Of a stretch of 42,784 nucleotides of DNA, positions 33,171 to 37,977 are shown in pieces. Position numbers and translations under genes: made by a program. This stretch comes from Candidatus Hodarchaeota archaeon (GTDB lineage Archaea > Asgardarchaeota > Heimdallarchaeia > Hodarchaeales > Hodarchaeaceae), in contig JAEOTQ010000068.1 of assembly GCA_016839785.1 (NCBI GenBank), positions 1 to 42,784 on the forward strand, written 5' to 3'. The notes beneath the pieces were generated by a model. It saw only the letters and a list, made by a program, of their open reading frames with translations, was not told the DNA's origin and ran no database searches. Every line of letters starts with the position of its first letter. Within the stretch, counting starts at the first letter, position 1.

Positions 33171-33644
33171 ATGGCATTACTTGATGGAGAAATCAGACTT
33201 TCATTACAGCGTATAGAGAACGCTCTCCAAAATTTTATGGAGCTTCGTGATTTCAGGAACTTTATGTTGGCGAAAGCATACATAGAGGAAGGCCAAGTTC
33301 AGACTGCAATCCAATTCTTGAATCGTATAGACCGAGATGCTGATTACAATGCCCAATTGGTCATATCACAAAGTTTATTCATACGAGCTCTAATTTTAGT
33401 GTATGATCTGCAGTTTACTGATGCTTTAGCACTATTAGTACGGATAAGAGGGATGAGCTTCGAGAAAGATGAGAAATTATCAAAGGACATAACAAAACTC
33501 ATCAATGACATCAAAATTCTCCAACAGGCTAGCGCTATCTATGATAATACTAAAACGGCCGAAACATTACATAATTTTCAACAAGATACGTTACGGAATT
33601 TAGAAGGCTATCTCACATCTGCCCGAGCCCTATTGAAAAAATAA
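33171..33644 (+). CDS. Unknown helical (TPR-like) protein
   Basis: 157 aa, almost wholly amphipathic helix, with a TPR-like pair AKAYIEEGQVQTAIQFLNRI then IRALILVYDLQFTDALALLVRI. Likely a protein-binding scaffold. No other motif. ATG start; its 3' end abuts the convergent tmk gene (1 bp between the two stops). Confidence 0.6.
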   Translation: MALLDGEIRLSLQRIENALQNFMELRDFRNFMLAKAYIEEGQVQTAIQFLNRIDRDADYNAQLVISQSLFIRALILVYDLQFTDALALLVRIRGMSFEKDEKLSKDITKLINDIKILQQASAIYDNTKTAETLHNFQQDTLRNLEGYLTSARALLKK

Positions 33645-35701: not shown

Positions 35702-35718
35702 AGTGAGAGTGAAGAATA

Positions 35719-36963
35719 CTGTCAGAGACAAAACAAATAGAAGTTAATGTATATGGAGCCAATTGGTGTAGTGACTGTAAACGCACAAAAAAATATCTAG
35801 GAGAGCAACGAATCCACTATGGGTGGTTTGACATTGAAAAATCGGATTCTGAAGGGGAAGAAGCTTTACAGTTTGTGTATGACACGAATGAAGCAATTTT
35901 TGGAACAAAAAAAAGAAAAGTCCCTGCAGTTGAAGTAATCAAGGATGGAGAACGAAAATTATTTGTGGAACCCTCCAATTATGAGCTGGCAAATTTCCTA
36001 GGTTTAGCAACACAAGCAAAAAAATCCTTTTATCATACTGTAATAATAGGTGCAGGACCAGCAGGGCTAACTGCCGCGATTTATCTAGCAAGAGATGGTT
36101 ATGATGTGTTGGTAATAGAACAGTCAACGATTGGAGGGCAAGCCTTCATAACAAATAGATTAGATAATTTTCCCGGATTTCCAGATGGTATTACGGGTGC
36201 GGACTTTGCAGAGAATGTTAGACGACAAGTCGAACGCTTTGGAGTCGAAATCCTTTCCCCTCAAAAAGTACAAAGTATTGGAACTTGTCATCCTGGTGGG
36301 ACATTTGATGAGTGTCAGTATAAAGTCGTTAAAACTGAAGCCCAAGAGTTTACCTGTTCTACTGTTCTTGTTGCGACAGGATCGAATTATCGTCAACTAA
36401 CTGTTCCTGGATCAGATGCACTACTTGGTATAAATATCCATTATTGTGCCACTTGTGACGGATTTTTCTACAAAAATAAGAAAATTTTTGTAATAGGAGG
36501 AGGAAATAGTGCCTTTGAAGAATCTCTCTTCTTAAAAGAAAAATTCGCAGACCATGTGACGATTATCATTCGTAGAGAAGAACCACAGGCATCTCCCGTT
36601 TTGCAAGAAAAAGTAAAAGATAAGGAGGGGATTGATGTTTGGGTGAATACAGAAGTAGTGGAGCTTGTAGGCGAGGATAGTTTAGAGGCTGTTAGAATTA
36701 AACATACCAATACTGGAGAAGTAAAAGAGTATCATCCCGATGGAATTTTCGTTTTTATTGGATTGTCACCCAATACTAAATTTCTGAAAGGAGTAAGTTT
36801 AGATCCCCTAGGTTTTATTACAACTTCTCAACAACAATCGTCAGTAAAAGGCATTTTTGCAGCGGGTGATTGTCGCTTAGGATCAGTTAAACAGGCTGTG
36901 GCCGCTGCAGGTGAAGGAGCTGCAGCTGCTATCGCTATTCGGGAATACTTGAGTAATACCTGA
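35719..36963 (+). CDS. trxB-like: Glutaredoxin-thioredoxin reductase fusion (non-canonical or disturbed start)
   Basis: Standard calling would start at GTG 35875, inside a domain. The frame is open back to a TGA at 35710-35712, and the added residues (VNVYGANWCSDCKRTKKYLG, then TKKRKVPAVEVIKDG) are a glutaredoxin-like fold with the active-site CSDC. No ATG/GTG/TTG exists; a CTG at 35719 or ATA at 35716 follows GAGAGTGA. GTG 35703 would work if one A of the AAAA near 35732 is extra. The rest is a normal thioredoxin reductase: FAD GAGPAGLTAAIYLA, redox-active CATC (about residue 245 from CTG), NADPH site GGGNSAFEE, and AAGDCRLGSVKQAVAAAGEG. It would pass electrons from NADPH through CATC, maybe directly to its own CSDC. 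Confidence 0.75.
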   Translation: MSETKQIEVNVYGANWCSDCKRTKKYLGEQRIHYGWFDIEKSDSEGEEALQFVYDTNEAIFGTKKRKVPAVEVIKDGERKLFVEPSNYELANFLGLATQAKKSFYHTVIIGAGPAGLTAAIYLARDGYDVLVIEQSTIGGQAFITNRLDNFPGFPDGITGADFAENVRRQVERFGVEILSPQKVQSIGTCHPGGTFDECQYKVVKTEAQEFTCSTVLVATGSNYRQLTVPGSDALLGINIHYCATCDGFFYKNKKIFVIGGGNSAFEESLFLKEKFADHVTIIIRREEPQASPVLQEKVKDKEGIDVWVNTEVVELVGEDSLEAVRIKHTNTGEVKEYHPDGIFVFIGLSPNTKFLKGVSLDPLGFITTSQQQSSVKGIFAAGDCRLGSVKQAVAAAGEGAAAAIAIREYLSNT

Positions 36964-36988: not shown

Positions 36989-37140
36989 GTCGAGTTACTC
37001 CTAAATAATTTAAGAGAGACTTTCTTCTTTGGACAAATAAATACAGTTTAATATCGAAAATTCTCTCTCTACGGGTTTTTATACCAACAATTCTATTTTC
37101 AATTAGAAACACAGTACTTAGTGTCTTTTTGGGTTTCTAA

Positions 37141-37149
37141 ATATATAAG
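37141..37149 (+). promoter_or_regulatory. TATA box of mini-protein A
   Basis: ATATATAAG, about 27 nt before the ATG at 37168, so probably a leaderless mRNA. No other start of transcription is needed. Confidence 0.5.
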
Positions 37150-37167
37150 TCGAAACAGGAATCATGG

Positions 37168-37326
37168 ATGATGAAAATGATTGATACAGAATCAATAAAC
37201 CTAAGCAATCTAAATGAAATACTCGCTTATCTGAAATACCAGGGTCCTCTATATTTACGTAGAATCGAAGAGTGTCCCCCAATTCCTCCCAAAATATCAT
37301 CCTCTCCTCTATCTAATTTTGTGTAA
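37168..37326 (+). CDS. Tandem mini-protein A (52 aa)
   Basis: First of three related frames. The core is LNEILAYLKYQGPLYLRRIE (residues 15-34), followed by a Pro/Ser-rich tail. ATGs at 37168, 37171 and 37177 are all in frame; the first two fit a leaderless mRNA from the TATA box at 37141. The core aligns with B (IEYLNYTGPVFTSV) and C (LEYLNYNGVLYTQN): L-x-Y/x-L-x-Y-x-G. An overlapping opposite-strand frame is a shadow. It is too short for a family search by eye; the core resembles a first helix of a winged-helix fold but nothing more. Confidence 0.6.
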   Translation: MMKMIDTESINLSNLNEILAYLKYQGPLYLRRIEECPPIPPKISSSPLSNFV

Positions 37327-37447
37327 GATTTGATCAATAGTAAATATAGAGGTTTTGTGACTTTCTTTGTTATGTGCAAATGGATCTGAATATCTTTTTT
37401 TGAAGTAGGTGGCATTTTCTGTTGGTACTACTAGGGTATCACAGAGA

Positions 37448-37456
37448 TTAATATAT
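37448..37456 (+). promoter_or_regulatory. TATA box of mini-protein B
   Basis: TTAATATAT, with its centre about 27 nt before the ATG at 37480; the same promoter-to-start spacing as for A. Confidence 0.45.
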
Positions 37457-37479
37457 CCCTCTAGATCAAATATTCTAAT

Positions 37480-37635
37480 ATGGCACGTCCTTTACTACAA
37501 CCATCACAAGAACGACTACAGTCAACTATCGAATATCTCAATTATACTGGCCCCGTGTTCACGAGCGTTCGCAGTGAACTAAGTACAGACGATACGAAAA
37601 GCTCACTCAAAATTATTGGTTCGTCTGCGTTTTAA
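37480..37635 (+). CDS. Tandem mini-protein B (51 aa)
   Basis: Core RLQSTIEYLNYTGPVFTSV, tail Ser/Thr/Lys-rich, ending IIGSSAF. Closely related to C at the core (EYLNY identical), less to A. Own TATA box, probably leaderless, own pyrimidine-rich terminator tract at 37687-37713. No cysteines, no membrane segment. Function unknown. Confidence 0.6.
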   Translation: MARPLLQPSQERLQSTIEYLNYTGPVFTSVRSELSTDDTKSSLKIIGSSAF

Positions 37636-37686
37636 TTATTTAAGTCGGATCAAGAAGACTCTCAACGGCAATGCCATACCCTTAAT

Positions 37687-37713
37687 CCTTTTCTCCTTTT
37701 TCCTTTTTTCTCC
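37687..37713 (+). terminator. Pyrimidine-rich tract after mini-protein B
   Basis: 27 nt of only C and T, with T runs of 4, 5 and 6, beginning 51 nt after the stop codon; an archaeal-type terminator. A TATA-like TATTTAAG at about 37638-37645 lies between stop and tract and would start a very short transcript. Confidence 0.4.
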
Positions 37714-37767
37714 TAAGAAGCTCTAAGAAGGATCCCTAGTGTGTGATATTCTGGAAATGTTATGGGA

Positions 37768-37776
37768 ATATAAAAA
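37768..37776 (+). promoter_or_regulatory. TATA box of mini-protein C
   Basis: AATATAAAAA; the expected start near 37797 leaves AGAGG (37799-37803) 6 nt before the ATG at 37810. Confidence 0.5.
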
Positions 37777-37809
37777 GAAGGTCTGAGGTGATACAACTAG
37801 AGGAACTAA

Positions 37810-37977
37810 ATGACTTCACAACCAGTGGAAAACTCTGACGAGCGGCTAGCGTTAATTCACCAAGAAACTCGTCTTCGACTTACATTAGAATACCTAAATT
37901 ACAACGGCGTTCTATATACTCAAAATCTCATTCCCACAGTTAAATCTCCAGAGAAAGTTGATCGGTCTGCCGCTTAA
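37810..37977 (+). CDS. Tandem mini-protein C (55 aa)
   Basis: Core ETRLRLTLEYLNYNGVLYTQ (residues 19-38), N-terminal extension acidic and Ser/Pro-rich, tail with Pro/Lys. Own TATA box and an AGAGG ribosome-binding site. The coding pattern matches B at residue level (EYLNY) but the codons differ (for example TAC/TAT, CTA/CTC), which indicates old duplication kept at the protein level rather than recent DNA copying. Confidence 0.65.
   Translation: MTSQPVENSDERLALIHQETRLRLTLEYLNYNGVLYTQNLIPTVKSPEKVDRSAA

What the first reader, a model, noticed from the sequence alone, without database searches (positions are those of the whole stretch)
37141..37977. Tandem family of three separately promoted mini-proteins sharing L-x-YL-x-Y-x-G
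Seen in sequence: three small frames of 52, 51 and 55 residues lie in one direction between trxB-like and the aldo/keto reductase. Each has a TATA box about 27-40 nt upstream. Their cores align: LNEILAYLKYQGPLYLRRIE, LQSTIEYLNYTGPVFTSV and LRLTLEYLNYNGVLYTQN. Flanks diverge and codons differ, so protein-level conservation after old duplication is likely. All are too short for standard gene callers. I do not recognise the family. Inference: a diversified set of small binding proteins or regulators.
Basis: partly seen in the sequence, partly recalled or inferred. Interest (0 to 1): 0.78.

Follow-up and report, generated by a model that had tools for sequence, protein, structure and literature searches.

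The report
Hodarchaeal tandem micro-protein family
Three overlooked genes for about 50-residue proteins in an Asgard archaeon are real, belong to a new family confined to one group of close relatives, and each has its own conserved control sequence, but what they do in the cell is not yet known.

Summary
Three small frames (A 37177-37326, B 37480-37635, C 37810-37977, + strand) are genuine genes. Orthologues of all three occur in the four closest genomes, with dN/dS about 0.05-0.25 in nearly all pairs. A and B-like copies occur in 10 of 11 same-genus genomes, between tmk/acyl-CoA dehydrogenase and the aldo/keto reductase. The A versus B/C split predates the genus. The window is a Heimdallarchaeia/Hodarchaeota draft genome. 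Nothing convincing was found in 216 other genomes of the phylum, nor in Pfam, NCBIfam, PHROGs, PADLOC, the PDB, phages or viral contigs.

Two points go beyond the finding. An unlinked fourth paralogue (E, 79 aa) carries the same core plus a C-terminal extension, next to a superoxide-reductase gene. The promoters also carry conserved family-specific elements: a 19-bp, 11-bp-period direct repeat upstream of every B-type gene (one exact site in the genome), and a 20-bp element with exact sites in this genome only upstream of A and E.

AlphaFold gives one helix over the core and a largely disordered tail. I judge them docking micro-proteins: one conserved helix-G-P-aromatic binding motif with exchangeable tails and separate regulation. 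Partner and function are unknown. A winged-helix origin was tested and not supported.

The parts
37177..37326 (+). Gene A: 49-aa micro-protein (52 aa if started at 37168), core LNEILAYLKYQGPLYLR
   Evidence: ORF; orthologues; dN/dS 0.06-0.23; start-site comparison
37480..37635 (+). Gene B: 51-aa micro-protein, core LQSTIEYLNYTGPVF, conserved C-terminus ...SSAF/Y
   Evidence: orthologues; dN/dS mostly 0.05-0.23; tails
37810..37977 (+). Gene C: 55-aa micro-protein with N-terminal extension ERLALIHQE, core LRLTLEYLNYNGVLY
   Evidence: orthologues; dN/dS 0.05-0.24
37056..37084 (+). Distal element of gene A: GAAAATTCTCTCTCTACGGG followed by TTTTTATAC; shared with unlinked paralogue E
   Evidence: 14-16 of 17 in five A promoters, below 1 in 1000 shuffles each; exact sites in own genome only upstream of A and E
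37139..37148 (+). Proximal TATA box of gene A (AAATATATAA), 28 nt before ATG 37177
   Evidence: kept in close orthologues and similar in G004 and G007
37424..37442 (+). Operator of gene B: direct repeat GGTACTAC-TAG-GGTATCAC, 11-bp period, just upstream of TATA
   Evidence: 12-16 of 16 positions in B-type promoters of 11 genomes; only exact site in own genome
37448..37456 (+). TATA box of gene B (TTAATATAT), 23 nt before ATG, predicts leaderless mRNA
37638..37669 (+). Conserved non-coding block between B and C, followed by a T-rich tract; role unknown, probably 3' end of B transcript
   Evidence: alignment; (close matches at this site in own clade); no stable RNA fold
37747..37776 (+). Conserved element plus TATA of gene C (TATTCTGGAAATGTTATGGGAATATAAAAA)
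   Evidence: conserved in five closely related genomes only
37799..37806 (+). Shine-Dalgarno-like AGAGGAAC before gene C
   Evidence: kept in all C orthologues

Best explanation
A genus-level family of protein-coding micro-genes. Shown: real genes, one family, ancient A versus B/C duplication, a fourth paralogue E, separate TATA boxes, conserved family-specific upstream elements, a helical core and a largely disordered tail in prediction. Inferred: each product is a docking micro-protein. An amphipathic helix (L-x3-[IL]-x2-L) ending in N-Y-x-G-P-[LVI]-[FY] binds one common partner, and the divergent tails (for B the kept ...SSAF/Y end) supply a second contact or control stability. Separate promoters let each copy be made under a different condition, so the common partner can be modulated by several inputs. 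The neighbourhoods (flavodiiron protein, Grx-TrxB-like reductase and aldo/keto reductase around A-C; superoxide reductase beside E) make redox or oxygen stress the likeliest setting; this last step is a weak inference.
For: Orthologues and synteny; purifying selection; tree with all A copies in one clade, 91/85 (75); invariant L, L, G in the core with divergent tails; AF2 helix 10-20 in B and 7-39 in C, tail of B below pLDDT 50; no enzyme, transmembrane or known domain; operators; no same-strand gene downstream before the convergent aldo/keto reductase, so not leader peptides; context annotation.
Against: No partner is identified. AF2 models rest on 13-14 sequences and are of low confidence (mean pLDDT 64 and 68). 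The redox neighbours are not kept around every dispersed copy: G006 and G008 A2 copies lie by a PHP phosphoesterase gene. The element search found no redox gene sharing the A/E element.
Confidence: 0.45

Rival explanations
1. Micro-proteins derived from a winged-helix regulator: paralogue E is a degenerate winged HTH and A, B and C keep only its first helix, acting as regulators that poison or autoregulate transcription factors.
For: By eye the core resembles helix 1 of wHTH domains (ILEYLxxxGPL), and E continues with helix-helix-strand-like sequence. In G003 the E-type gene has an in-frame TAA after the core, leaving a 33-aa micro-frame. Private operators suggest autoregulation.
Against: Profile comparison of E and of the micro-proteins with 29 ArsR-type wHTH domains from the same genus scores no better than column-shuffled alignments. 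No HTH family hit in Pfam. No basic DNA-binding surface in the core.
Confidence: 0.18
2. Precursors of ribosomally made, modified or secreted peptides (RiPP or archaeocin-like): conserved core as leader, variable tail as product.
For: Small size, tandem copies, conserved motif plus divergent tail; radical SAM-like genes about 5 kb away in G006.
Against: No maturation enzyme or exporter beside the genes in the window or in most relatives. Orthologous tails are conserved under purifying selection. No signal or hydrophobic segment.
Confidence: 0.1
3. Stress-linked chaperone or solenoid client peptides: the core docks on the TPR-like protein encoded next to tmk, or on HSP90, both near neighbours across much of the genus.
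For: TPR-like gene (33171-33641) and tmk stay near the micro-genes in most array loci, HtpG in several; TPR grooves bind short helices.
Confidence: 0.12
4. Chance open frames or decayed fragments.
For: Short, unannotated, draft genome.
Against: dN/dS 0.05-0.25 in nearly all pairs, genus-wide synteny, conserved promoters.
Confidence: 0.02

Closest known systems
Small regulatory proteins of Methanosarcina mazei (MtrR, 49 aa, PMC13370731; sP26, 23 aa, PMC11957540)
   Same: Unannotated archaeal proteins under about 50 aa, lineage-restricted; MtrR is induced by a condition (H2) and acts by binding an enzyme complex.
   Different: No sequence relation was tested or found; MtrR is an oligomer at the membrane; ours form tandem paralogue arrays with a shared core and separate operators.
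MicroProteins (single-domain interfering proteins, concept as stated in PMC7534434)
   Same: Core shared with a larger paralogue (E), and an E-type gene in G003 is cut by a stop right after the core.
   Different: E is not shown to be a regulator, and a wHTH relation was not supported.
Winged-helix (ArsR-type, PF01022) regulators
   Same: Superficial resemblance of the core to helix 1.
   Different: No profile similarity above shuffles; no Pfam hit.

Membership tests
Winged helix-turn-helix (PF01022 / ArsR type) | Profile similarity over the HTH domain | tested here: not met
   hhalign scores 8.1 (E) and 8.2 (micro-proteins) versus shuffled means 8.8 and 7.6; no Pfam HTH hit
Winged helix-turn-helix (PF01022 / ArsR type) | Three-helix plus wing fold | tested here: inconclusive
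   A, B and C are too short; AF2 gives one helix (56, 57).
MicroProtein (truncated single-domain regulator) | Derived from a larger protein and binds its interaction domain | tested here: inconclusive
   shared core with E and the truncated G003 frame; direction of evolution and binding not shown
RiPP precursor | Linked maturation or export genes | tested here: not met
   none in the window region tested; only G006 has radical SAM-like genes about 5 kb away
Leader peptide / attenuator uORF | Located just upstream of a regulated gene on the same strand | tested here: not met
   next gene after C is the convergent aldo/keto reductase on -
Known Pfam, NCBIfam, PHROGs or PADLOC family | Match above curated cut-off | tested here: not met
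Small regulatory proteins of archaea (functional class) | Translated in the cell and binds a target | not testable with these tools
   needs ribosome profiling or pull-down

The most novel reading that the evidence does not exclude
A lineage-specific set of interchangeable docking peptides in the proposed sister group of eukaryotes: one conserved short linear motif carried by four or more separately regulated micro-proteins (and grafted onto a larger protein, E), each wired to its own operator, modulating one common target.
Probability: 0.3. Interest if true: 0.72.

Novelty: new variant of a known kind. Interest (0 to 1): 0.55.

Why it matters
Small proteins are essentially undescribed in Asgard archaea: the library searches found no survey of them. 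Here is a family validated by selection and synteny, with operators precise enough to search for the regulator. If the docking idea holds, it would show motif-based regulation by micro-proteins in Hodarchaeales, the order proposed as sister to eukaryotes (PMC10307638; contested in PMC12395588).

Tried and rejected
Winged-helix homology of E and of the core: scored no better than shuffles. Genome-wide hunt for further YLNYxG proteins by DNA pattern: counts not above the reversed-pattern control, and the inspected hits outside the family were chance. Hits outside the genus: best E 3e-4 in G091, a 28-aa frame without a start codon, expected by chance in 228 genomes. PDB hits with either profile: none significant. 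RNA family or structured RNA in the intergenic blocks: none. Other genomic sites of the A/E element with 1-2 mismatches: the five inspected fall inside long reading frames. Second site of the B operator: inside a long ORF (58). Viral and phage origin: no relatives. Gapped local alignment of the A and E promoters was only marginal; the ungapped element test was decisive.

Full report
Setting. The window is contig C19 of a 4.04 Mb, 248-contig draft genome. Named relatives holding gene C are MAGs labelled Candidatus Hodarchaeota or Heimdallarchaeota. The three frames lie between a Grx-TrxB-like FAD reductase and a convergent aldo/keto reductase. Beyond these are a flavodiiron protein (ODP beta-lactamase plus flavodoxin), HSP90, an acyl-CoA dehydrogenase, thymidylate kinase and a TPR-like protein.

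The genes are real. Each protein alone finds orthologues at 77-90% identity in G001, G002, G009 and G011, with E down to 1e-27, and weaker relatives in the rest of the genus. Pairwise dN/dS is 0.05-0.25 in all but one comparison (0.44 for the very close G001/G009 pair of B, with few changes), while the other frames carry stops. Gene A most likely starts at 37177, since G002 lacks the upstream ATGs.

One family, old duplication. Of the 11 other same-genus genomes, 10 (all but the small G005) hold at least two copies, nearly always between tmk or acyl-CoA dehydrogenase and the aldo/keto reductase. In the tree all first-position (A) genes form one clade (91/85) apart from B/C, so the split predates the genus; C is extra in the window's own clade. 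Dispersed A-type copies exist beside PHP-type genes in G006 and G008 and beside truA-like genes in G003. Across 228 genomes of the phylum nothing convincing appears outside this genus; the best is E 3e-4, a 28-aa frame without a start. The two other genomes of the order have none, but they are only 80-85% complete.

A fourth paralogue. The profile also finds E (79 aa, G000:C102:8479-8715, -) carrying PLHVVMSYLNYSGPI at its N-terminus and a conserved aromatic C-terminal part. It lies beside a desulfoferrodoxin (superoxide reductase) gene and an FAD reductase-like gene. It is found in six genomes; in G003 the frame is interrupted by TAA right after the core, which is either decay or a natural route to a micro-protein.

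Promoters. Each gene has its own TATA box. For A and B it lies 23-28 nt before ATG, so leaderless mRNAs are predicted; C has an SD-like AGAGGAAC. Upstream of every B-type gene is SGTAYTACNNNSGTATCAC, two half-sites 11 bp apart next to TATA, scoring 12-16 of 16 in 11 genomes (shuffle P at most 0.0055). The consensus was drawn from some of these sites, so the test is not fully independent. The own genome has a single exact site, B's. Upstream of A, at 37056-37075, lies GAAAATTCTCTCTCTACGGG; its only other exact genomic match to the consensus GAAAAWYCTCYCYCTACNNG is upstream of E. Sites with 1-2 mismatches that I inspected lie inside long ORFs. Unlinked family members thus share a private control element.

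Structure and function. No library or PDB match exists. AF2 gives one helix across the core (B 10-20; C 7-39) and, in B, a tail below pLDDT 50; the alignments are shallow and confidence is modest. Leader peptides are excluded because no same-strand gene follows. Maturation enzymes for peptide products are absent in the window region tested. I tested a winged-helix origin of the core and of E against 29 wHTH domains of the same genus; it scored no better than shuffles.

Mechanism. Most likely these are docking micro-proteins: a fixed helix-G-P-aromatic motif binds one partner, tails vary, and promoters vary. Archaeal precedent: M. mazei MtrR (49 aa), induced by H2, binds the Mtr complex (PMC13370731). 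Partner and condition are unknown. A redox or oxygen-stress setting is suggested only by neighbours.

Limits. No expression data. Novelty is at family level; the class (lineage-specific small regulatory protein) is known.

Noticed in passing
window 35710-35740: The Grx-TrxB-like reductase keeps its CxxC thioredoxin-like N-terminus in frame (from about 35740), but its start codon position reads CTG where relatives have ATG; the ORF listing therefore starts it at GTG 35875. CTG start, or draft error.
   Followed up: partly
L119:1908-2206 (G003:C123): E-type gene interrupted by an in-frame TAA just after the core, leaving a 33-aa micro-frame and a separate C-terminal frame.
   Followed up: partly
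L065:6048-7376 (G003:C24): An IscB/TnpB-like gene (N-terminus with PLMP) sits immediately upstream of, and overlaps the frame of, the A-type micro-gene.
   Followed up: no
L117:6072-6395 (G010): A 98-aa protein with a similar N-terminal QEIVQYLNYSGAI core and a C-terminal CxxC...CxxC zinc-finger-like part; possible further fusion of the motif, weak score only.
   Followed up: no
window 37638-37669: Strongly conserved non-coding block AAGTCGGATCAAGAAGACT followed by a T-rich tract, without a stable fold.
   Followed up: partly
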